Assembly (NCBI GenBank): GCA_030849075.1
Contig: JASAOO010002873.1
Coordinates: 1-12,055 of the forward strand
Direction: 5' to 3'
Source: Zelonia costaricensis
Taxonomy: Eukaryota; Euglenozoa; Kinetoplastea; Trypanosomatida; Trypanosomatidae
Length of the DNA: 12,055 nt
Shown piece by piece: positions 1,295 to 12,055 of the stretch. The notes under the pieces are model-generated. The model saw only the letters and a list, made by a program, of their open reading frames with translations. It had not been told where the DNA came from and made no database searches. Each line of letters begins with the position of its first letter. The stretch's first letter is position 1. A program made the position numbers and the translations under genes.

Positions 1295-3802
1295 TCAGCG
1301 GCGGTGGTGGTTCATGCGGCCATCGCTGTGGTTGTTGTGGCTATTCATGTGGCCGCTGGCCTGCTCCGTCGATTCGTCGCCGGGGGCGAGGACCAGCTTG
1401 CGGCGCGACAGTCGCTGAACAATAGGGCGGCCGTAGGTGTACGTGCGGATGGGCAGGATGTACTTCTCGATGTTGTCGACAAGCTTCACGAATTGGTCCA
1501 CCTCGGACGCGTCAAGCACGCGCTGCACGACGTAGTTGGCGTACTGGTCGCTCATCATGAGGCACAGCATGCTCGGCTGGCCGAGGCCCACCGACACCGC
1601 CTCCTCAATGACGCCCATCGCCGCATCCTTGGCCTCGCGGTTCCTCTCCTTCACCTCCTTCACCGTCCCATCCGCGTTGTTGCGGGTCGGCGGCCACGTG
1701 CCCTCCTCGGCGTTCACCATCGCCGCCGTGCGTGTCGGCGAGCGCTTGAAGGTGACCACCTCGACCGGGTCTGCCTTGACGGGGAAGTCGGAACACATCA
1801 TCTCCACAATCGCCATGCGGTGCGCCGGCTTAGAGCGCGCGTACAGCTTCTCCATGACGTTCGAGGCGAACTTCTGCTTGCTCAGGTAGAAGAACTTCGG
1901 CTTCAGAGCCGCGTACACACGCTCGATCTTGCTCTCGTCCTTCACGTGCTGCAGCACGTGCTGAATGACGTAGTTGCCGTACTGGTCCTTGGCCAGCGCG
2001 TCGACTGCCTTGAGCAGCTCAGCAAAGATGGTGTCCTCCTGCTCTGGGCAGTGCTGCATAATGCACTGAATGACACGGCAGCCGTACGCGTGCGTCGCCA
2101 GCTCCATCACGCGGCCCGAGAAGGCGGAGATGATGAAGCCGCACTGGTGTGGAATGACCTCGACGCACTTTTGGATGACGTGGTTGCCGTTCTGGTCTTG
2201 GATGCACTTGGCGACGTTGTCCTTCAGCTCCGCCAGGATGATGTCGAGGCCGGCCGGCGGCATCACCTCGATGCACTTTTGAATAACGCGGCAGCCATAG
2301 GTCTGCATCGTCAGCTCCACCACGTGCCCGCAAAGCCGCTCCGCCGCAAACGTCAACTGCGCCGTGTTGCCCTTGTCCAGCAGCTTCTGCAGCACGTAGT
2401 TGCCGAAGATGTCTGTCACAAGCTCCAGCGGCGCCTCGAAGATCTCGTGGAACAGGTGGTCCAGCGACTCCGCGCTGGCCGAGTCGACAGCGCTCTGAAT
2501 AAAGCGGCTACCCTCTTGGTCCTTGGCGAATTCCACAGCGTAGCCGTTGAGGTCCTCGATGCGCCACTGCGACTGCTTCTGCTCCGCGATGTCATGCCGG
2601 AACATCCGCAGCTTCTCGGAGCCGACAAAGCGGTGGCTGTTGGGTCCGTTACCGCCCTCCATCCCCATGCCACCTGCCCCACCACGACCAGCACGGTAGC
2701 CGCCGCGACCGCCACCGCGACCGCCTGACCCGCCCGGACCCGAGGCTGCACCGTTTGCGTTGTTGAGGCGCCGGTTGCCACCCCGAGCGGCGGCGCCGCG
2801 GCCCTGGAAGCCGCCACTGCCGCCGTTGCTGACCTCAGGCTGGCTGTACAGCATCGCCGAGTCCACCTCCGGCATGCCCTCCATCAACTGGTACGTGTTG
2901 CCACGTCCGGCGGCGAGGGCGTTGCTGCTGCTCGTGCCCTGCGTCGCGTCGTAGTAGTTTGCTGCACCCTCCACACCGGTGTCGTAGAGGCCGAACGTGT
3001 TCATGGGCTCCTGCGTGTAGTACTGCTGCGACGCAATGCTCTTCGCTGCGGCGCCGGTACCACGGCCGTACGCCCCGGAGCCGACCATCTCGTGCTCGTA
3101 GCCGCCACGGTTGCTAGACGCAGGCATCGGCAGCTGACCGTGCGCGTAGGCGCGTAGCGTGCTTGGGGTGGCCATCGCGAGCGGCGTCGGCGCATAGGCG
3201 GCGAAGAACTGCGTGCCCGGGCTCATCATGTTGCTCTCCGCGATAAGGCTGTGCCCGTACGGGTTGATGGCCTGCGCCTCCTGCGTCTCGCGCAGGTCCT
3301 TCGCATCCAAGGCGAGGCTCTTGGCGCCCATCTTGCGCCCCATCGCGCCCACCCCCGGGCCGCCGCGGGTCACCGTCGTGGTCGGCATCGCGCTGACGTC
3401 CTCCCATGGCGTCTCCATGTTGCTGAGGGCCTCCTGCACCTCGATGGACGGCAGCGGCGGCGGTGCGCGCGGGTCGCGGGGCTGCTTGCTGTGGTACCAG
3501 TAGTAGTACTCCTGCGAGCGCCGCATCTCGTCCGTGGGGTCGCGGTTGCTGTTGATGAAAAGCTCAAAGTCCATCGGCGTAAAGCGGGACGAGGCGGGCG
3601 GGTAAAAGGCGGTCATCTGTTGCACAGGCTGACGCGCCGCCGCCACCGCACTGTACCCGCCGGTCGCCGTCGCGCTAGCCACTTCGTACCCGCCAGCCCC
3701 ACTGCGCGGGGCCGGGGTGCCACCGGCCACTCCACTGGCACCACCGCCGCGGCCAAAGCGCTGCCCGGCGTGGCTGTCGCCCCAGTTCTGCTCCGAGTAC
3801 AT
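1295..3802 (-). CDS. Pumilio/PUF-family RNA-binding protein, 835 aa
   Basis: Predicted cytoplasmic post-transcriptional regulator that binds short motifs in mRNA 3' UTRs. Eight PUF repeats occupy about residues 420-800. Their base-reading triplets are S432/R433/Q436, N468/Y469/Q472, C504/R505/Q508, N540/H541/Q544, C575/R576/Q579, N610/Y611/Q614, S647/N648/E651 and N756/Y757/Q760; a terminal half-repeat has YGRPIVQ near 790-796. Repeat spacing is 35-37 residues except between repeats 7 and 8, where it is 109. The N-terminal 400 residues are low-complexity (Gly, Ala, Ser, Tyr), with an aromatic/proline segment near 63-112 and an RGG/GGR-rich stretch at 325-385. The C-terminus is His/Asn-rich. 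ATG at 3802 is the only reasonable start: there is no in-frame ATG upstream, and no sense ATG for 635 bases. Stop is TGA. Family assignment is firm; which numbered trypanosomatid PUF this is was not determined, so no symbol is given. Confidence 0.96.
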
Positions 3803-3906
3803 GATGTACGGGATGAAGCGGTGAGTATACGCGGGGAGGAGGGAGGGGGGGGGGAGCGAAGGACGACGAAGGGAGGTGAAACTCTAAGAGAAGCAGAGGG
3901 TGCGTG

Positions 3907-3933
3907 CTACCAGGGAGGGGGGGGGAGAGGTGT
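3907..3933 (-). promoter_or_regulatory. Candidate trans-splice acceptor for the PUF mRNA (proximal)
   Basis: A sense-strand tract reading CTCTCCCCCCCCCTCCCTGGTAG places an AG at the complement of 3907-3908. This would give a 5' UTR of about 104 nt. It is equally compatible with the ATG start at 3802; choosing between this and the distal site needs spliced-leader read data. Another AG follows a weaker T-rich tract at the complement of 4149-4150. Confidence 0.35.
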
Positions 3934-4002
3934 GCCGTGGGTAGACCAAGTGTTTCTTGAAGGGAAGGAGCGTGCACGTGATTCGCGACAGAATGCCAGC
4001 AC

Positions 4003-4050
4003 GTGTATGTGTGTGTGTGAGTGTGCCTGTTTGTGTGTGTGTCTAGGTGT
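4003..4050. repeat. Imperfect TG/CA microsatellite
   Basis: This TG-rich stretch on the + strand (TGTATGTGTGTGTGTGAGTGTGCC, then TGTGTGTGTGTC) reads as CA-rich on the sense strand. It lies in the ATG-free leader of the PUF gene. Dinucleotide repeats of this sort are common in Leishmania-type intergenic DNA. Confidence 0.8.
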
Positions 4051-4290
4051 GAGCGGGGGTAGACCAGAGGCGAGACACAGTGGGAGCTCGGGACAAGCAC
4101 TGTATGTTGTGTCGGCGACGCTCTCTGCGTTTTGGAGGCGCTGGCGCACTCCGGAACAACAACAAGAAAAAAAGGAAGGCAATAAAACCGCCACAAACCG
4201 CAGCGCGAGAAAACAGACTAGAAGGGAAAACTAAACCGAAGGTGGAAGGTCGGAATGGGCGTGAGTCACAAACGCTTCAGCAACGGCGAT

Positions 4291-4365
4291 CTGCAGAAGC
4301 AATGAGCGGAAGAAAAAAAGAAACCTGTCGGAGTGNGGGGGGGGGGGGGGGGGGGGGGGGGGGGG
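4291..4365 (-). promoter_or_regulatory. Candidate trans-splice acceptor for the PUF mRNA (distal)
   Basis: On the minus strand a C29 run and then a TTTCTTTTTTTCTTCC tract lead to CTTCTGCAG. The first AG is the complement of 4291-4292, with none in the roughly 30 bases between it and the T-rich tract. Use of this site gives a 5' UTR of about 490 nt, still without an upstream ATG. It is the acceptor closest to the ATG-desert boundary at 4438. Confidence 0.38.
4336..4365. repeat. G29 homopolymer next to an ambiguous base
   Basis: One N at 4336 is followed by 29 consecutive G (C29 on the sense strand). The true length is probably uncertain because of sequencing or assembly limits at the homopolymer. 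Another long G run is G14 at 11142-11155, and a second N sits at 9533. Confidence 0.9.
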
Positions 4366-4437
4366 ATGTATGGCTTGTGTACCGCAATTATGCTTGGGCT
4401 TGGTTAGCGAAGGGAATGATGTAGCTGCGCGGCCGGA

Positions 4438-5626
4438 CATCAAGCACGGGCGCGTGTTTTTTAGTTTGTTAATGGGGTGGGTGGTTACGTAAATGCGTGA
4501 GTGTGCGCGTTGATCAAGAGAAAAGGGGAGCAGAGAAGGATTGAGAGGTCAAGGAGAAAACGCGGGGCGGGGGGAGGGGGAGGGGGAGCGTGACGCGGAA
4601 CACGCGGACATACGTAATACCGCTGCGCAAGCTACCAGAGGCAAAGCGGGGACGCGCACACTCGCTGTGCTGCGGTGGAGGTGTTCCACAGTCGGTCTCG
4701 ACACCCGAGACATAGGAGGCGGCGGAGAGGGGGAGCGTGCGCCGTCACGCAGCGGGCAGAGGACGGCAACTACTTGCACCCCCTCCTCCACAAGCAGACA
4801 CTTCGAAGCGAGACTGAACCCACGCTTCCGCAGACACCCTCATCCTTCCCCACCATGCGATTAGTATCTTCCTCTAGCGTTTTCGACTGTTCGCGGTAGC
4901 CACTTCGCAGCGGAGACGTGCCGCGATGGATGCGATTACGATCTCGTCACGGCTGCGCGAGGGCAAAACACGGTGGCACGACCCTTCCATACTCCTGTCT
5001 CGCGTCTGCACATCGGGATTGATTGGAGCCGCGCGTGATGAGGACGAGGCACAGGGCTACGAGCGGCCAAAAAACAAACGAAATGAAAAAAGGGAGGCTA
5101 AAGAGCGTCTTCGCAACGACACAGGTAAAAAAAAAACCACCGAGAGCGTGGCAGGTTTCCTTGCGGCTTGGCTTCCAGGGCATGCAAAGGTGGCGGGCTG
5201 ATCCGCTCACTCACCGCCCGCACGTGACTCACACTCAAACCCTTGCCTTTCGGCCGCAAACACATGTGCGAAGCGTCACGCGCCACACCTACGGGGTGGA
5301 AAAAAAAAAAACCTGTGCCAGGGGAGCGGGATATGGGGAGTGGGGCTGAAGAGGGCAGATGCGGCGCTTGCTAGTACTAGGCTACGTGACAGGGAGCGGC
5401 TCTGACGCGAGCGAGAGAGGCGTTTCCACTCTGCGTAGCAGCAGAGCCGAAAAACGCCACGAGACTCGGTGGCAGCGTGAGAGCCGCGAGAGAAAGAGAC
5501 AGACAGAGAACTGATTCCCTGGGCTGCTACCAACGCACGCCGACAAGCGCGATGAGCAGAGAAAAAAAAAAAGGATTCGAACTTCACAGACCCCTTCCTT
5601 CCCGCCTCCACTCCGGTGTAGAAGGT
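4438..5626 (-). other. Probable 3' UTR of the surface-protein gene and spacer
   Basis: About 1.2 kb follow the TAG stop of the surface gene with no recognisable coding region. Sense-strand T tracts occur at the complement of 5562-5572 (T11) and 5300-5311 (T12). Sense ATGs occur about nine times, in contrast to the ATG-free stretch that follows at 4437-3803. I read this as 3' UTR, but the polyadenylation position is not visible. Confidence 0.45.
4564..4586 (+). other. G-quadruplex motif
   Basis: Four G tracts (4, 6, 5 and 5 G) are separated by single bases C, A and A on the + strand, fitting the canonical G3+/N1-7 pattern. The motif lies in the spacer downstream of the surface gene, on the template strand. 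Confidence 0.6.
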
Positions 5627-8029
5627 CTAGTGAGGGAAGGAGCCCTCCTCCGTGAGTGCCTTTCCCCGCTGCCCTGCAGCGGCCAACTCGTTGCCTCCGT
5701 GCGTCTCCTGCCACGTCTGATTCGCTTCACGGAACTTCCGACTGCGCCGCGCACTTCGGAGGCATACGACAGTCAGGGCGACAAGCACAGCCACAAAGAG
5801 GACAGCAAAAATAACAGCGAACACGATGGCCGCGACGTACCCGCCTGTCATCGTGGAGCTGCCGGCTGCGTTGTCACCGGTGCCCTCCAGCATTGCAGCG
5901 TTGAAGCCCCCAGCGTTGTTGCCCGCACCGAGCACGAGGTTGCCCACGTACCGCATCGGTGTCATCATCCCCATGTAGCACACCTGCACCTCCACGAAAA
6001 TCGGGTAGCTACCAGGGCGCGTGCCGGCAGCGACGGTGAGCGTGGCCGTGAGGCTGGTCTTGTCGACGGCGGTGGGGGCGAGGGTGACGGCGCTGCGCTG
6101 CGCCGCCGTGACGCCGACAAAGAGCTTCTGGAAAGCGGCGTCACGGTAGTTGAAGTTGGTCCCGGTGAAAGTGATGCTGGCGCCGCTCGTGCACGACGCG
6201 CTGCTCGTGGCGCAGCTGCCGGTGGCGCCGGTCACCTCGGGCAGCGGCGGGTTGACGGCGATGGAGTAGAGCGCGGTGGAGCCCAGCAGCAGCGCACTGC
6301 TGGCTGTGTCCTGCACCACGAAGTTGTACATCCCCATGACGCCGTTGGCGGACGCGATGTTGCAGCTCAGGGCGGTGGCCGAGACCTTGACGGGGCTGCA
6401 CGTGGGCGAGGACGGGTTGCGAGCAGCTGCCATCGGCTGATTGTTGTAGAAGGAGACCTTGTACGCGGCGTTGGGGTCGAAGGTGCCGGTTACAGACCAG
6501 AGGTCGCCCGTGGAGGGCCAGTCGCTGGACTGCCCCGTCACCGAGTACGGGCTGGACGGCGTCGTGCTGGACCAAACGGGCACGCGCGCCTCCAAGAACG
6601 TGCCCACGGCGAGACTGCCGGCGCTGGACGTCTTGCTGTCGCTCTGCACGAGCGTCACGGGGTACACGCCGTCGCTGGCGGTGGCCGCCATGGCCAGTGT
6701 GCAGGACACCGTGCGCTCGCTCGAGACGACGCCGGTGCACGTGATGGACTGCTGGTCTGCCGTCGTCGAGCCGACGAGCACCGACGTAACCTTGGAGAGG
6801 CCGGTGCCGGTGAGCGTGACGGTGTTGTTGCGGCACAGATCGTTGCCGTCGTAGCAGAAACCGGAGACCACCGTTGCGCCCAGCGACGCGGCGCCGTTCA
6901 AGTCGAAGCCGGGCGCGCCGCTGCCGGCGCCGATGACGATGCTGCCGATGTAGTAGAGCGGCGACATCATCCCCATGTAGCACACCTGCAGCTTCGCGTA
7001 GACGGGGTAGGTGCCGGCGGGCGTGCCGGCAGCGACGGTGAGCGTGGCCGTGAGGCTGGTCTTGTCGACGGCGGTGGGGGCGAGGGTGACGGCGCTGCGC
7101 TGCGCCGCCGTGACGCCGACAAAGAGCTTCTGGAAAGCGGCGTCACGGTAGTTGAAGTTGGTCCCGGTGAAGGTGATGTTGGCGCCGCTCGTGCACGACG
7201 CGCTGCTCGTGGCGCAGCTGCCGGTGGCGCCGGTCACCTCGGGCAGCGGCGGGTTGACGGCGATGGAGTAGAGCGCGGTGGAGCCCAGCAGCAGCGCACT
7301 GCTGGCTGTGTCCTGCACCACGAAGTTGTACATCCCCATGACGCCGTTGGCGGACGCGATGGTGCAGCTCAGGGCGGTGGCCGAGACCCTGACGGGGCTG
7401 CACGTGGGCGAGGACGGGTTGCGAGAAGCTGCCATCGGCTGATTGTTGTAGAAGGAGACCTTGTATGCGGCGTTGGGGTCGAAGGTGCCGGTGACAGACC
7501 AGAGGTCGCCCGTGGAGGGCCAGTCGCTGGACTGCCCCGTCACCGAGTACGGGCTGGACGGCGTCGTGCTGGACCAGAATGACAGCTTCGCCAGCTGCGG
7601 CTGCTCGTACAGCGCACCGAGCAGCACGCTGCCGCCGTACACCGTTGTACTGTCGCTCTGCACGAGCGTAATGGGGTACAACCCCGCGTTGGCTGACACC
7701 GCCATGGCGACGGTGCAGTTGATGCTGGTGGCCGTGGCAGTGAAGCCGCTGGTGCACGTGATGAGCTGGTGGTCCACCGCCGTCGCGCCGATCGCGATGG
7801 AGGCGGTGGATGCGAGGCCGCTACCCTGCAGCGTAATCGTGTTGTTGATGCACCAGCCATCGCCGTTCCACGCGCAGGTGGCGCTGGTGACGGCGGGCGC
7901 GGCAGCCGCGACCGGCACAGTGAAGGCCAACAGCACTGCTGAGGTGAGTAGGAACGCACGCCCAAGCTGGAGGGTGCCGTCTGCTCCTGTGAAAGCTCTG
8001 CGTGAGCTGCGAGAGAGGCGGGTAGACAT
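5627..8029 (-). CDS. Type I surface membrane protein with duplicated IPT/TIG-like modules, 800 aa
   Basis: Predicted cell-surface glycoprotein of unknown function. A basic N-terminus is followed by a hydrophobic signal segment (about residues 25-44, ending VAAAA). The ectodomain consists of two tandem units (about 47-380 and 383-710). Each unit has a Cys-bracketed domain (C52/C60/C92/C105; C392/C399/C431/C443), a WSSTTP...DWPSTGDLW domain, and a domain with an ITFTGTNF strand pattern ending CYMGMM. The G-x-N/F and 'TGTxFN' patterns resemble IPT/TIG immunoglobulin-like folds, but this is judged by eye. N-linked sequons occur at N62, N104, N284 and N401. One transmembrane helix (about 730-757, core AVIFAVLF) precedes a basic 43-residue tail. 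ATG at 8029 is chosen because no sense ATG occurs for 2055 bases upstream and the next Met comes after the signal segment. Stop is TAG. A paralogue lies immediately upstream at 11578-12055. A ligand or adhesion role is only a guess. Confidence 0.93.
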   Translation of the reverse strand: MSTRLSRSSRRAFTGADGTLQLGRAFLLTSAVLLAFTVPVAAAAPAVTSATCAWNGDGWCINNTITLQGSGLASTASIAIGATAVDHQLITCTSGFTATATSINCTVAMAVSANAGLYPITLVQSDSTTVYGGSVLLGALYEQPQLAKLSFWSSTTPSSPYSVTGQSSDWPSTGDLWSVTGTFDPNAAYKVSFYNNQPMAASRNPSSPTCSPVRVSATALSCTIASANGVMGMYNFVVQDTASSALLLGSTALYSIAVNPPLPEVTGATGSCATSSASCTSGANITFTGTNFNYRDAAFQKLFVGVTAAQRSAVTLAPTAVDKTSLTATLTVAAGTPAGTYPVYAKLQVCYMGMMSPLYYIGSIVIGAGSGAPGFDLNGAASLGATVVSGFCYDGNDLCRNNTVTLTGTGLSKVTSVLVGSTTADQQSITCTGVVSSERTVSCTLAMAATASDGVYPVTLVQSDSKTSSAGSLAVGTFLEARVPVWSSTTPSSPYSVTGQSSDWPSTGDLWSVTGTFDPNAAYKVSFYNNQPMAAARNPSSPTCSPVKVSATALSCNIASANGVMGMYNFVVQDTASSALLLGSTALYSIAVNPPLPEVTGATGSCATSSASCTSGASITFTGTNFNYRDAAFQKLFVGVTAAQRSAVTLAPTAVDKTSLTATLTVAAGTRPGSYPIFVEVQVCYMGMMTPMRYVGNLVLGAGNNAGGFNAAMLEGTGDNAAGSSTMTGGYVAAIVFAVIFAVLFVAVLVALTVVCLRSARRSRKFREANQTWQETHGGNELAAAGQRGKALTEEGSFPH
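6020..6574 (-). repeat. Intragenic repeat, copy 2 (555 bp)
   Basis: Encodes residues 486-670 of the surface protein, the second copy of the block at 7022-7576. It has lost the N-I-T sequon present in copy 1 (N284 becomes S618). It continues toward the membrane with the RPGSYP...VEVQVCYMGMM sequence that the neighbouring paralogue shares, rather than the PAGTYP...AKLQVCYMGMM version found at the end of copy 1. Confidence 0.93.
7022..7576 (-). repeat. Intragenic repeat, copy 1 (555 bp)
   Basis: Encodes residues 152-336 of the surface protein at 5627-8029. It is nearly identical at DNA level to copy 2 (6020-6574): I count about 7 differences in 555 bases. The resulting protein differences are S/A, R/K, T/N and N/S. 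The sequences on either side (residues 47-151 versus 383-485) are clearly more diverged, so the homogenised block is shorter than the full duplicated unit. Confidence 0.93.
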
Positions 8030-8220
8030 GTGTGCTGCGGTTGGTAGGGCGCCTTGGTTGAGAAAGGGTACGGGCTGGAATGCGGGCAGAGCGGTGAAAT
8101 CGCGGTACTAGGCAGTGCTGAACGAAGGAGCTGGTGCGGTAGAAATTGCGGCCGTCAGTAGAGTAGTCACGAAGCAAAGCTCGGAAACGTTGCTTTTTTT
8201 GGTGAGCCACAGTACGCGTG

Positions 8221-8244
8221 CACACACACACACACACACACACA
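8221..8244. repeat. (CA)12 microsatellite
   Basis: A perfect dinucleotide repeat, TG on the sense strand, lies about 190 bases upstream of the surface-protein start and inside its predicted leader. Confidence 0.95.
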
Positions 8245-8295
8245 AATAAGAGCGAGTGTCCGGCGCTCACTAATCAGAACGCGACGCACAAGACG

Positions 8296-8337
8296 CTGTG
8301 ACGCGGCGATGGTGACCGCGGGAAAGCAAAAAAAAAA
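8296..8337 (-). promoter_or_regulatory. Candidate trans-splice acceptor, proximal, for the surface-protein gene
   Basis: A T10 tract on the sense strand (complement of 8328-8337) is followed by pyrimidine-rich sequence, and the first AG is at the complement of 8296-8297. The resulting 5' UTR would be about 267 nt, lacks any ATG and would contain the (TG)12 repeat. Confidence 0.35.
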
Positions 8338-8548
8338 GCTGATGCGGGAACCTCCAGAAAGGCGAGTACCAAGGAGCTCAGTCCTGTGCACACCACGCAG
8401 CGTTAGCGAATGCCACGCACAGAGCCACCCGTGAAGAGACGACTGTGAGCAATAGAGAGCTCAAGTGGCTTTCAGACACACAAAAGGGGGGAAGTGTGAG
8501 AGCGTCTGCAAGTACCTGCGCTGCTCGTGCGCCGTTGGCGCCCTTCAC

Positions 8549-8568
8549 GGGGTGGGGTTGGGGTTGGG
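8549..8568 (+). other. G-quadruplex motif
   Basis: The tracts are GGGG-T-GGGG-TT-GGGG-TT-GGG on the + strand. The motif lies in the ATG-free region upstream of the surface-protein gene, on the template strand. A weaker three-tract version occurs at 8662-8677. Confidence 0.6.
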
Positions 8569-8817
8569 AAGAAAGCAAGTGGACAGCGCAGAAATCCAGC
8601 AACCCTGGAAGCAGAGGCCGGGTTGGAGAGCGGGGTAGAGCCTCGAGCGAGTGAGTAGAGGTGGGGTGGGGTGGGGGATGCGGAGAAGGGACAGACGAGT
8701 CTGGTGGAGGAGAGCAGCACGGCCAAAGAGGGTTTGCAAGAGAGAGGGAAAAGAAGAAGCGAGGAAGGCTCTACAAACTCAGCGCTCACGCGGGCGGCAC
8801 GGAGGGTGACAACAACG

Positions 8818-8868
8818 CTAAAAACCAAAGAAGGAAGAAAAACGGGAGAGAGGAAAAGAGAACGGCGG
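8818..8868 (-). promoter_or_regulatory. Candidate trans-splice acceptor, strong pyrimidine tract
   Basis: The sense strand has roughly 50 bases of almost pure C/T without AG, ending in GGTTTTTAG (AG at the complement of 8818-8819). By sequence alone this is the best acceptor-like site upstream of the gene. It would give a 5' UTR of about 790 nt. Confidence 0.38.
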
Positions 8869-9919
8869 TGCTACGGTGGCCGGGCTTGCTCTGAGGGGGG
8901 CGGGGTGAAAGAGGGCTGGCGCGGCTACGCAACTGAGTGGGAGGCGCCGCTGAAGGCTCACGACGAGAAAAAAAACCAACAACAGCGAAGGCGTGCCGAA
9001 CAATAGAGAGAAAAGAAAAACGAGCGAAGCAGTCCTCGATCTCAACGGCTGGAAAAAAACAGGGGGGAGAGGCGGGGGAAGGAGTGGGTGAGCACAGCGA
9101 CTGCACCACTCACACAGGAATGCCAGCTAAGAATGGCGGCGGCCAAAGTCAGCAACTGCACACGCTAAAAGCACAGGCACGACAGTTACGAGAACACACC
9201 GCGGCAAGAGCGCACGCCGCAGGCACCGACAGGAAAGAGGAAGAGATGGGAAGGGGGCGCCAAGAGACGGGACGGAGTAGTCGTGCAAGCCGTGCGCGCA
9301 CGAGTCGAGACGGGTAACAGTCGTTTTTTTTTTTTCACGTCGCTGAAGCCCGGAAAGGGAAAACGAAGCCGAGCTGCTCGTCCAGGACTGACCCAACGCG
9401 ACACACGACGGGTGTGTCGTCAGCGTGAGGTCAGGAAGGGGGAAGTGTGATTCCTCGACGAGACAGCGTCGGTGTCCAAGCACTGACTTGGCGCAGACGG
9501 AGGGGGGGGGGAGGTCAGGGGGGCGAGGGGCGNCGTCTTCGGTATGTTGCGGCGCTTGTGTTGTTACTTTAAGAGACTGAAGGTGTGTGCGCGTGGCGCG
9601 TTTCAGGCTCAACGATCGAGCGAGTGGCGTGCGGGGAAAGGGGGGGGGCGGGGGCAAAATGGCTTTGTGTGGCAAGTTCAGACAAGAGAGACGCAAAGAA
9701 AAAGAAGTGTGGGAAACAACAGCAACAAAAAAAGGAGTGTGCCTGTGTCTGCGTTTGTGTGTGTATGACGCAGGGACGGGGTCGGGTGGGTCGGTAGGGG
9801 GCAAGAGAGGCTGGGGACACGTCAGAGAAACAGTGACGAACACCAGAAGAAGGAGAGCCACCAACAGAGCGCACACACAAATGCAAAATAGAAGGAGAAA
9901 AGAGGAGCACTGGATTTGT

Positions 9920-10020
9920 CTATCGGGCAGGAGGGAAGTCGTCGGCGGGTGCGTTAGAAGACGGGAGTTTTAGAGATGAAAGGAAGCGGAAAAAATGAAA
10001 CAGCGAGGCACGGAAAGGCA
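9920..10020 (-). promoter_or_regulatory. Candidate trans-splice acceptor at the edge of the ATG desert
   Basis: About 100 bases without AG on the sense strand, including TTTCATTTTTTCCGCTTCC-type tracts, end at GATAG (AG at the complement of 9920-9921). The site lies just inside the desert boundary at 10085. It would give a leader of about 1.9 kb, which is long for this group. Confidence 0.25.
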
Positions 10021-10084
10021 GCTTTAGAGGAAGAGGAGAGGTGATACGCAGGGCGTTGTCTGAGCACGCAGTGCGAAATGGAAG

Positions 10085-11577
10085 CATGCGGGATTGTTCA
10101 GAAGCCAGATCGTGCGCCAGGGCGTTGGGTGGCGACGGTAGAGAGTGGTGAGGTCGATGCCCGTTGTGAGAAAGGTGCAGTGCGGTCGATTAGTGGGACG
10201 TGGATGCGCAAACGGATGTGCGGGATGAGGAGGGGGGAGGCGGAAGATGAATGGGAGCCGTGAAAGAGAGTACCCATTGCCAGAAGCAAACAGCGTAGTT
10301 TTGCTGATCTCACCATCGTGCACGCGTGCCTAAGACCTCCTCCCATTAGAGGTGGAGGAAGTGAGCGACGATGCCCAGCGAGTGGAGGAGAGAGCGGGCC
10401 GTCCCCCAGCTTCGTAGTGGGCGGGGTAGAGGGCGAAAAAAGCAGCCCCACTCCAGCCTTGTGCTGTGGCAGGTGCCGTGCACCATGACAGATCTCGCCC
10501 GTGCGTCATGATGGAAGCGGGAACTGAGGAAGAAGTGGGGGGGGATGCCCTACCTGCGTGCAGACAGCTGCTAATGCGAGTGCAAGTCTTGTGCTCCAGG
10601 TGGCGAGGCTGTGCACTGACACGGTCGCAGGTGTCCCTTCGGAGACCCTTCTCTCTCTGTGCGAACTGCATCTGTCGTTTTTTTTTTGCACTACAGTTAG
10701 ATTTCATGGAGCTGCTTGCTTATCATAAGGGATTACACTTTTCGGTACTCTCTCACACACAGACACAAAGAAGAAGACAGTGACAAAAGTTGAAGAAATC
10801 GTGTCCGTGCGCCTCTTGTGGCCTGACGTCGCCCGCTGTCAGAGGAGCTGGAAATGGCGAAAAAGAAAAGAATGGAAGGCAGAAACGAGAATTTACCAAT
10901 AATGGCGACTCAGGAACACACCGTCGTCAGCGCGAGCACGTCGTCTTGTGCGATGCGGCAGTTTTTTTTTTTTTACCGGGGTGAGGAAGGGCCCTAAAGG
11001 GAGCAGCACTGCCGCGTTGGACGGCGCGCACCGCGCGTTGTTCGACCTCGCCGTGCACGCAGGCACACCAAAGGCGGCCAGAGCAACTCCCCGCACGCGA
11101 CTGAGGAGAGCAATAAAAAGAAGCGAGAATCGATGATCAGCGGGGGGGGGGGGGGAGGGGGAGGGTGTTAGAGGAAGGCCCAAAGGGGGTTCATAGACGT
11201 GTTGCCGAGCGAGGGAAACTGGAAGCGCAGGAGTGGGGAGAAAGAGAGACAGTGGCGCCTGCGCGAACACGCACGCAAGGCGGCGCTAAACGCTCCCCTC
11301 AGCGAGCAGAACCACCACGGTGGTGCAGGCAGCAGCAAAGTGCGAGGTGAGGGAGAAGTGGTGGTGGCGGTGAGGAGATGGGGTGGGGTGGGTTGGAGGC
11401 TGTTCTCCTCTCACAAGTTCAAGCCGACGAGAACACCACCATCGCTCCAAATCTCCGTTCATGCCTGCCACGCGAGTATAGTGAAGAGAGCATCCGCGTG
11501 CTGCCGTGCCGCTTTCGCTCTTATCAGCAGCACGCGCTTCAGCGCCGCAACAAGCTTCACCATGAACACGGTGCTCC
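10085..11577 (-). other. Probable 3' UTR of the partial upstream paralogue and spacer
   Basis: About 1.5 kb follow the TGA stop at 11578. No credible coding region was seen. Sense ATGs occur about 13 times, a normal density. The sense strand carries an A13 run (complement of 10962-10974), an A10 run (complement of 10678-10687) and a C14 run (complement of 11142-11155). The segment at about 10313-10687 differs in composition and is listed separately. Confidence 0.45.
10313..10687 (-). mobile_element. Possible degenerate SIDER-type retroposon in a 3' UTR
   Basis: This stretch of about 370 bases is more balanced in composition than the purine/pyrimidine-skewed flanks and resembles, from memory, the short degenerate retroposons (SIDERs) common in Leishmania 3' UTRs. 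It contains a short inverted pair (CCTCCTCCCATT / AGAGGTGGAGG near 10336-10360). I could not identify the 79-bp signature, and the A10/T10 run at 10678-10687 is at the wrong end for a poly-A tail if the element is on the minus strand. The call is tentative; unique UTR sequence is the alternative. Confidence 0.28.
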
Positions 11578-12055
11578 TCAATGTGTGCGACCGACACCGA
11601 CGCTGTCGTAATGGTTGAGTGGGGGTCCGTTGGGGTTCATCTCCACACTACCGTGCTCGAAGAACAGTTCTCGCTGCCGGTACTTCTTGGCCACGAGGTC
11701 AAACCGGCACCGGAGTACGATGAGAACCACCACCGCGGCCGCAAATAGGACGGCAAAAATAACGGCGAACGCGACGGCCGCCTTGTAGCCGCCCGTGTTG
11801 ATCTTCTCGATCACTGTCGCCGTCTCCTCCTCGACCGTGGCATTCAGCTGGGCAGTGTTGAAACCCTGAACGGCACCAGAAAACAGCACGAGGTTGCCCA
11901 CGTACCGCATCGGTGTCATCATCCCCATGTAGCACACCTGCACCTCCACGAAAACCGGGTAGCTACCAGGGCGCGTGCCGACAGCGACGGTGAGCGTGGC
12001 CGTGAGGCTGGTCTTGTCGACGGCGGTGGGGGCGAGGGTGACGGCGCTGCGCTGC
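11578..12055 (-). CDS. C-terminal part of a paralogous type I surface protein (5' end outside window)
   Basis: This partial reading frame is open to the right edge of the window; 158 codons are visible before TGA. It is the tandem paralogue of the gene at 5627-8029. It starts inside the last IPT/TIG-like domain (TAVDKTSLTATLTVA, then VQVCYMGMMTPMRYVGN) and is almost identical there. It then changes to an unrelated juxtamembrane stalk rich in Thr and Glu. The transmembrane helix (visible residues about 92-114) shares the FAVIFAVLF core with the paralogue. The cytoplasmic tail of about 44 residues (RCRFDLVAKKY... ending GVGRTH) has no clear similarity to the other gene's tail. By analogy the missing N-terminal part should carry a signal peptide and one or more modules. 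Function is unknown. Confidence 0.9.
   Translation of the reverse strand, partial: QRSAVTLAPTAVDKTSLTATLTVAVGTRPGSYPVFVEVQVCYMGMMTPMRYVGNLVLFSGAVQGFNTAQLNATVEEETATVIEKINTGGYKAAVAFAVIFAVLFAAAVVVLIVLRCRFDLVAKKYRQRELFFEHGSVEMNPNGPPLNHYDSVGVGRTH
11885..12055 (-). repeat. Block shared between paralogues (matches 5931-6101)
   Basis: These 171 bases match 5931-6101 with only two differences seen by eye (a C/T in the GTT/ATT codon and an A/G in the GTC/GCC codon). The match runs off the window edge, so the full shared block is probably longer. Identity ends abruptly at 11885/5931, just after the codons for NLVL, where the two genes diverge into different stalk sequences. Confidence 0.93.

What the first reader, a model, noticed from the sequence alone, without database searches (positions are those of the whole stretch)
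8030..10084. 2 kb without a single sense-strand ATG upstream of the surface-protein gene
CAT is absent from 2055 consecutive + strand bases, so ATG is absent from the sense strand, while about 15 ATGs lie on the other strand. Other intergenic DNA in this window has a sense ATG roughly every 100-130 bases. With the skewed base composition I would still expect more than ten by chance. Known selection against upstream ATGs in 5' UTRs would explain it if this is transcribed leader, but a leader of nearly 2 kb would be exceptional for a trypanosomatid. A regulated, alternatively spliced leader or a functional RNA are other options.
Basis: partly seen in the sequence, partly recalled or inferred. 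Interest (0 to 1): 0.75.

Follow-up and report, generated by a model that had tools for sequence, protein, structure and literature searches.

The report
Long ATG-free leader before a gene
A 2 kb stretch just before a surface-protein gene of a Leishmania-like parasite has no start codon on the coding strand, most likely because much or all of it becomes the untranslated front end of the messenger RNA, where stray start codons would be harmful; the length is unusual, but similar stretches turned up in a small sample of the same genome.

Summary
Confirmed: + strand 8030-10084 holds no CAT, so the sense (-) strand has 2055 nt without ATG, from the start codon (CAT 8027-8029) to the next sense ATG at 10085. 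Expected: 16.5 (base composition), 11.6 (own bases, dinucleotide bias of distal flanks elsewhere) or 7.1 (dinucleotide shuffles; 1 of 5000 had none). The 1493 nt beyond is normal: 14 seen, 13.5 expected.

In 80 kb of the same genome plus this window, 10 of 10 other 5' flanks are ATG-free for 341-761 nt, and 2 of 10 also hold ATG-free runs of 1675 and 1593 nt. This is the long end of a recurrent feature.

In 6 of 11 flanks the first upstream ATG lies 9-87 nt beyond the AG picked by a published Leishmania splice rule (7 of 88 mismatched pairs). Here the pick gives a 2030-nt leader; the desert ends at 2058. In 5 of 11 the rule fails. Best reading: a long, multi-acceptor spliced-leader 5' UTR purged of upstream ATGs. 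Main rival: a 670-790-nt leader plus pyrimidine-rich spacer lacking ATG partly by chance. No RNA data were available. Published Leishmania leaders reach 7 kb, so "exceptional" is not upheld.

The parts
8030..10084 (-). sense-ATG-free stretch (2055 nt) upstream of the surface-protein gene
   Evidence: no CAT on the + strand; 1 of 5000 dinucleotide shuffles also had none
5627..8029 (-). gene whose start codon ends the desert: 800-aa predicted surface protein with DUF7498 and DUF7497 stretches and a TIG-like match
   Evidence: seven relatives found, six of them named (Leishmania, Leptomonas, Lotmaria, Porcisia, capped candidate list)
10060..10061 (-). predicted outermost spliced-leader acceptor AG (5' UTR 2030 nt, first leader base 10059), after the longest AG-free fragment of the flank (242 nt)
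   Evidence: first upstream ATG 28 nt further upstream; nearest 20-nt polypyrimidine tract ends 165 nt upstream of the AG; prediction only
8818..8819 (-). alternative acceptor AG (5' UTR 788 nt, first leader base 8817) behind the longest polypyrimidine tract of the flank (36 nt, 22 T)
   Evidence: prediction only
8701..8702 (-). alternative acceptor AG (5' UTR 671 nt, first leader base 8700) behind a 31-nt polypyrimidine tract
   Evidence: top inter-AG pick if the search is limited to 700 nt; prediction only
9049..9050 (-). alternative acceptor AG (5' UTR 1019 nt, first leader base 9048) behind a 24-nt tract
   Evidence: prediction only
9321..9345 (-). most A-rich 25-nt sense stretch of the flank (15 A), a possible polyadenylation region of the upstream gene under the rival reading
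   Evidence: stretches with 14 A also at 10986 and 10704, outside the desert
10085..11577 (-). rest of the intergenic region with normal sense-ATG density (14 seen, 13.5 expected); probably 3' UTR and spacer of the upstream gene
11578..12054 (-). 3' end of the upstream gene, a partial paralogue of the surface protein, cut by the contig end
   Evidence: 11641-12054 is 64% identical to residues 644-781

Best explanation
The desert is a long leader zone of the surface-protein gene. The polycistronic pre-mRNA is read from the - strand; the spliced leader is joined at one or more AG acceptors between about 670 and 2030 nt upstream of the start codon, the outermost predicted at window 10060-10061. 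A scanning ribosome would stop at an AUG in such a leader, so sense ATGs are removed from the DNA that can enter the mature mRNA, while ATGs on the other strand and sense ATGs upstream of the outermost acceptor are not. The pyrimidine-rich, A-poor sense strand needed for trans-splicing lowers the ATG expectation and makes a very long ATG-free run easier. Shown: absence of ATG, its one-sidedness, the return to normal density at 10085, the same ATG exclusion next to every sampled start codon, and similar long runs in two other flanks. Inferred: transcription, acceptor positions, and selection as the cause.
For:: 0 sense ATG, 15 on the other strand (13.0 expected by shuffle); 0-2055 nt upstream 0 ATG; 2055-3548 14 seen, 13.5 expected; longest ATG-free run 2058 (start to start), shuffle 95th percentile 981, 0 of 1000 shuffles as long; ten other flanks, 0 sense ATG in 0-250 nt (13.2 expected), 6 in 250-500 (13.9 expected); other strand 29 and 31 (28.7 and 26.5 expected); at 800-2000 nt L025 and L029 have 0 (4.7 and 4.5 expected; P 0.001 and 0.004), the target 0 (3.7 expected, P 0.015); other strand not depleted in these three; the one sense ATG within 2.39 kb of the L025 gene is followed at once by a stop; the first upstream ATG lies 0-90 nt beyond the AG after the longest inter-AG fragment in 6 of 11 flanks (7 of 88 mismatched pairs; 0 of 5000 permutations reach 6; without the target 5 of 10, 0 of 5000). 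PMC4538839 and PMC12978572 (passages read): long leaders and multiple acceptors are normal in Leishmania.
Against: No RNA evidence. The inter-AG rule fails in 5 of 11 flanks, among them three of the five longest. PMC2335281 (passages read) credits the rule with about 60% valid sites and mentions a 700-nt search space; limited to 700 nt my pick for the target is 671, not 2030. The 0-90 nt cut-off was chosen after seeing the data (P at most 0.0032 for cut-offs of 30-250 with all 11 flanks, at most 0.0114 without the target). The seven other triplets score 0 of 11, but they first occur close to the start codon (medians 42-158 nt), so they are a weak control. For the target alone, a permutation that also moves the ATGs gives P 0.08 for the 28-nt coincidence, against 0.009 with the desert held fixed. 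The polypyrimidine tract of the 2030 site ends 165 nt from its AG, against a median of 64 in L. major (PMC4538839); the longest tract points to a 788-nt leader. Beyond 500 nt the absence is a 0.5% event under shuffles; ATG over all of the flank beyond 800 nt is not depleted (14 seen, 16.5 expected, P 0.27). In L029 the lone upstream ATG opens a 179-codon frame. The N at 9533 may hide a gap. Conservation could not be tested.
Confidence: 0.6

Rival explanations
1. Composite: the main leader is about 670-790 nt (first leader base 8700 or 8817) and is ATG-free by selection; the rest is spacer and 3' UTR of the upstream gene, which lacks sense ATG because its sense strand is pyrimidine-rich and A-poor, helped by chance.
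For: The two longest polypyrimidine tracts of the flank (36 and 31 nt) sit just upstream of these sites. The most A-rich sense stretch lies at about 9345, 528 nt upstream of 8817, near the published 558-nt median between polypyrimidine tract and upstream polyadenylation site (PMC4538839, passages read). 762-2055 nt lacks ATG in 48 of 5000 shuffles, not rare over thousands of genes. The other ten flanks have their first upstream ATG at 341-761 nt.
Against: Two of ten other flanks show a similar long depletion, more than chance readily gives; ATG density returns to normal 28 nt beyond the top predicted acceptor; stretches nearly as A-rich lie at 10986 and 10704, which would suit an acceptor at 10060.
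Confidence: 0.3
2. Pure chance in a locally AT-dinucleotide-poor stretch, without selection.
For: The AT dinucleotide is at 0.36 of expectation in the desert, below the 0.46-0.69 of the 11 whole flanks, which brings the expectation down to 7.1.
Against: 1 of 5000 shuffles has none; the first 340 nt are ATG-free in 11 of 11 flanks; low AT content may itself result from loss of ATG.
Confidence: 0.05
3. A separate functional or long non-coding RNA, or a structured regulatory RNA, occupies the stretch.
For: Leishmania has many long non-coding transcripts (PMC12978572, passages read). In a scan of the whole flank (46 windows a strand, 25 shuffles each) a few windows inside the desert fold better than shuffles: z -3.6 at 9477 and -2.8 at 8577 on the sense strand, -3.3 at 9380 on the other.
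Against: No Rfam family at the curated threshold, one chance-level match below it (20.9 bits against 41), no tRNA; mean z -0.14 and 0.05 on the two strands; a non-coding RNA by itself gives no reason for loss of ATG.
Confidence: 0.05

Closest known systems
Long, multi-acceptor 5' UTRs of Leishmania mRNAs
   Same: Predicted leader above 2 kb, several predicted acceptors, pyrimidine-rich sense strand; L. major leaders 0-7252 nt, median 233 for primary sites, about 98% of genes with more than one site (PMC4538839, passages); L. donovani 2-7744 nt (PMC12978572, passages)
   Different: No spliced-leader reads for this locus; complete absence of ATG over 2 kb was not described in the passages seen
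Scarcity and repressive effect of upstream ATGs in trypanosomatid leaders
   Same: Sense ATG excluded next to start codons; uORFs in 22% of T. brucei 5' UTRs, fewer than in mammals, and removal of one upstream ATG is reported to raise reporter protein 7-fold (PMC3973304, passages)
   Different: Here the ATG-free zone is about three times the median first-ATG distance of the 11 flanks (636 nt)

Membership tests
Trypanosomatid spliced-leader 5' UTR | directly upstream of a same-strand coding sequence | tested here: met
   desert ends at the start codon of ORF 5627-8029
Trypanosomatid spliced-leader 5' UTR | polypyrimidine tract and AG acceptor at the upstream end | tested here: inconclusive
   top inter-AG pick at 10060-10061, but its tract ends 165 nt away, and tracts of 20 nt or more are about as dense inside the desert (8, 3.9 per kb) as beyond it (5, 3.4 per kb)
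Trypanosomatid spliced-leader 5' UTR | spliced leader joined at that AG in RNA | not testable with these tools
   no reads or cDNA of this organism were available
Upstream-ATG-purged leader | ATG depleted on the sense strand only, relative to local composition | tested here: met
   0 sense, 7.1 expected; other strand 15 seen, 13.0 expected
Upstream-ATG-purged leader | depletion conserved between species | not testable with these tools
   G000 has no relatives in the genome search; relatives were found only as proteins
Known structured RNA family | match to a curated Rfam model | tested here: not met
   0 matches at gathering scores in the window

The most novel reading that the evidence does not exclude
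A distinct class of genes in this lineage carries about 2 kb leaders from which sense ATGs are almost wholly purged (3 of 11 sampled flanks: target, L025, L029), and the first upstream ATG marks the outermost functional spliced-leader acceptor so closely that leader length can be read from DNA alone. The class may share a translational control that needs long, scannable, pyrimidine-rich leaders.
Probability: 0.3. Interest if true: 0.5.

Novelty: new member of a known kind. Interest (0 to 1): 0.3.

Why it matters
It suggests that the reach of upstream-ATG exclusion can be measured from sequence alone in a trypanosomatid genome without transcript data, and it offers a simple test (first upstream ATG against predicted acceptor) for leader length. 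The locus itself is an ordinary, if long, case.

Tried and rejected
Functional RNA: Rfam at gathering scores and at E 0.5, ARAGORN, and a folding scan gave nothing convincing. Hidden coding gene: the longest - strand frame in the desert (9127-9876, GTG start, one X) has no Pfam match, and without a sense ATG no ordinary coding sequence can start there. Repeated element: the desert and the 1493 nt beyond it each match only themselves in the 28.67 Mb assembly, with the tool's caveat on simple repeats. Conservation test: not possible; relatives came back only as proteins, from capped candidate lists. Literature: seven searches listed no title on ATG-free deserts as such; only listings, abstract starts and, for eleven papers, passages found by term were seen; no paper was read whole. 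Three of those (PMC7059621, PMC4210626, PMC6084854) were searched for a statement that upstream ATGs are rarer than chance; the passages shown gave none, except that PMC6084854 reports in-frame methionine depleted just upstream of highly translated genes.

Rows dropped before counts: flanks came from 8 loci of 10 kb plus the window; L027 (one frame across the whole locus) and L028 (no frame passed the filter) gave none. Short or low-GC3 frames were set aside by eye as unlikely genes: L023 4660-5019, 8778-9107 and 9642-9998; L024 3-341; L029 1881-2342 and 8291-10000; L029 601-987 was counted as upstream gene. If L029 1881-2342 is real, that flank is shorter (2343-4201) and still holds one ATG. 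The L024 flank is open at the locus edge. Besides L025, L029 and the target, one short flank (L023 547-1869) is also low in sense ATG as a whole (6 seen, 14.7 expected, P 0.002).

Full report
What is there. The window is a whole 12,055-base contig (C63) of a 28.67 Mb assembly in 755 contigs. Three genes lie on the - strand: a pumilio-family protein (1295-3802), a predicted surface protein with DUF7498 and DUF7497 stretches and a TIG-like match (5627-8029), and the 3' end of a paralogue (11578-12054). The pumilio protein is 78-81% identical over its full length to Leishmania and Porcisia proteins and 74% to Leptomonas pyrrhocoris, with one unnamed entry at 98% (capped candidate list), so the organism is a close relative of Leishmania; the species was not settled.

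The observation. Between the start codon at 8027-8029 and position 10085 the + strand has no CAT, hence the sense strand no ATG, over 2055 bases; the other strand has 15. Expected numbers are 16.5 from base composition, 11.6 from the stretch's own bases with the AT and TG bias of eight other flanks beyond 800 nt, and 7.1 from dinucleotide content; 1 of 5000 dinucleotide shuffles had none. Upstream of 10085 the density is normal: 14 in 1493 nt, 13.5 expected; over the whole 3548-nt flank the count is 14 against 19.9, P 0.06. What stands out is the run, 2058 against a shuffle 95th percentile of 981, more than the total.

How unusual it is in this genome. I took eight 10-kb stretches from large contigs and defined 10 other 5' flanks, nine there and one in the window. 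In 10 of 10 the first upstream ATG lies 341-761 nt from the start codon. Pooled, the first 250 nt hold 0 sense ATG (13.2 expected) and the next 250 hold 6 (13.9 expected), with the other strand at expectation; beyond 500 nt there is little pooled depletion (91 seen in three bins, 102.6 expected). Two of the 10, L025 and L029, are different: each has one ATG about 720 nt upstream and then a further ATG-free run of 1675 and 1593 nt. In the fixed zone 800-2000 nt upstream, five flanks are long enough: L025, L029 and the target have 0 sense ATG (4.7, 4.5 and 3.7 expected; P 0.001, 0.004, 0.015), while L024 and the second L026 flank have 8 and 9 (7.5 and 8.0 expected); the other strand is not significantly depleted in any of the five. 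So the target is the longest of a recurrent kind, not a singular case.

Where a leader could begin. PMC2335281 (passages read) reports that in Leishmania the AG after the longest AG-free fragment upstream of a start codon is a valid splice junction in about 60% of cases. Applied here to whole flanks, by length or by length weighted with pyrimidine content (same pick in all 11), it places the target's acceptor AG at 10060-10061, a 2030-nt leader, with the first upstream ATG 28 nt further at 2058. The same near-coincidence, first upstream ATG 9-87 nt beyond the pick, occurs in 6 of 11 flanks including the target, against 7 of 88 mismatched pairs. Permuting fragment order with the first ATG fixed gives a mean of 0.6 and never 6 in 5000; moving the ATGs along with the fragments gives a mean of 1.05 and never 6 in 2000. 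For cut-offs of 30, 50, 150 and 250 nt P is at most 0.0032 with the target and at most 0.0114 without it. The 90-nt cut-off was chosen after seeing the data. Seven other triplets give 0 of 11, but as they first occur near the start codon this is a weak control. In the other 5 of 11 flanks the pick lies upstream of one or more ATGs (1, 2, 4, 6 and 18), so the rule is not the whole story, above all in long flanks.

Counter-evidence. The longest polypyrimidine tract in the flank (36 nt) precedes an acceptor that would give a 788-nt leader (first base 8817), and a 31-nt tract one of 671 nt (8700); further candidates give first leader bases at 8949, 9048, 9164, 9486, 9576, 9810 and 10059. The tract of the last one ends 165 nt from its AG, long against the published median of 64 nt (PMC4538839). 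Within a 700-nt search the inter-AG pick is 671. The most A-rich sense stretch of the flank lies inside the desert at about 9345, where the upstream gene could be polyadenylated if 8817 is used; nearly equal ones lie at 10986 and 10704, which would suit 10060. Between 762 and 2055 nt the absence occurs in 48 of 5000 shuffles. I therefore keep the composite reading at 0.3.

Literature (passages found by term, no paper read whole). L. major: 154,046 trans-splice sites, leaders 0-7252 nt, median 547 over all sites and 233 for primary sites, about 98% of genes with more than one site and 56% with at least 10; polypyrimidine tract to upstream polyadenylation site 558 nt (PMC4538839). L. donovani: mean 479, range 2-7744 nt (PMC12978572). 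L. mexicana: median 242 nt, mean 2.4 acceptors per gene, uORFs of 25 codons or more in 1,122 transcripts (PMC4599935). T. brucei: uORFs in 22% of leaders, and removal of one upstream ATG reported to raise a reporter 7-fold (PMC3973304); its spliced-leader tags put the major leader above 2 kb in 235-356 genes, depending on stage (PMC2916883). A 2 kb leader is thus in the tail but not exceptional.

Verdict. It is best read as a long, probably multi-acceptor spliced-leader 5' UTR from which upstream ATGs are excluded. It belongs to a known kind; the possibly new part is the close tie between the ATG-free edge and the predicted acceptor, which needs a genome-wide test with mapped spliced-leader sites.

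Noticed in passing
window 5627-8029: The surface protein appears to carry an internal duplication (three DUF7498 and two DUF7497 stretches); the six named relatives found are 450-488 aa (one marked partial), against 800 aa here and 775 aa in one unnamed JGI protein.
   Followed up: partly
window 1295-8029: The pumilio and DUF7497/7498 relatives in Porcisia hertigi have neighbouring locus tags (JKF63_02128 and JKF63_02127), which suggests conserved gene order.
   Followed up: no
window 4336-4365 and 9533: Single N beside a run of 29 G, and a single N inside the desert: possible small assembly gaps.
   Followed up: no
L025:4600: The only sense ATG within 2.39 kb upstream of the L025 calpain-like gene is followed directly by a stop codon, the least harmful kind of upstream start.
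   Followed up: partly
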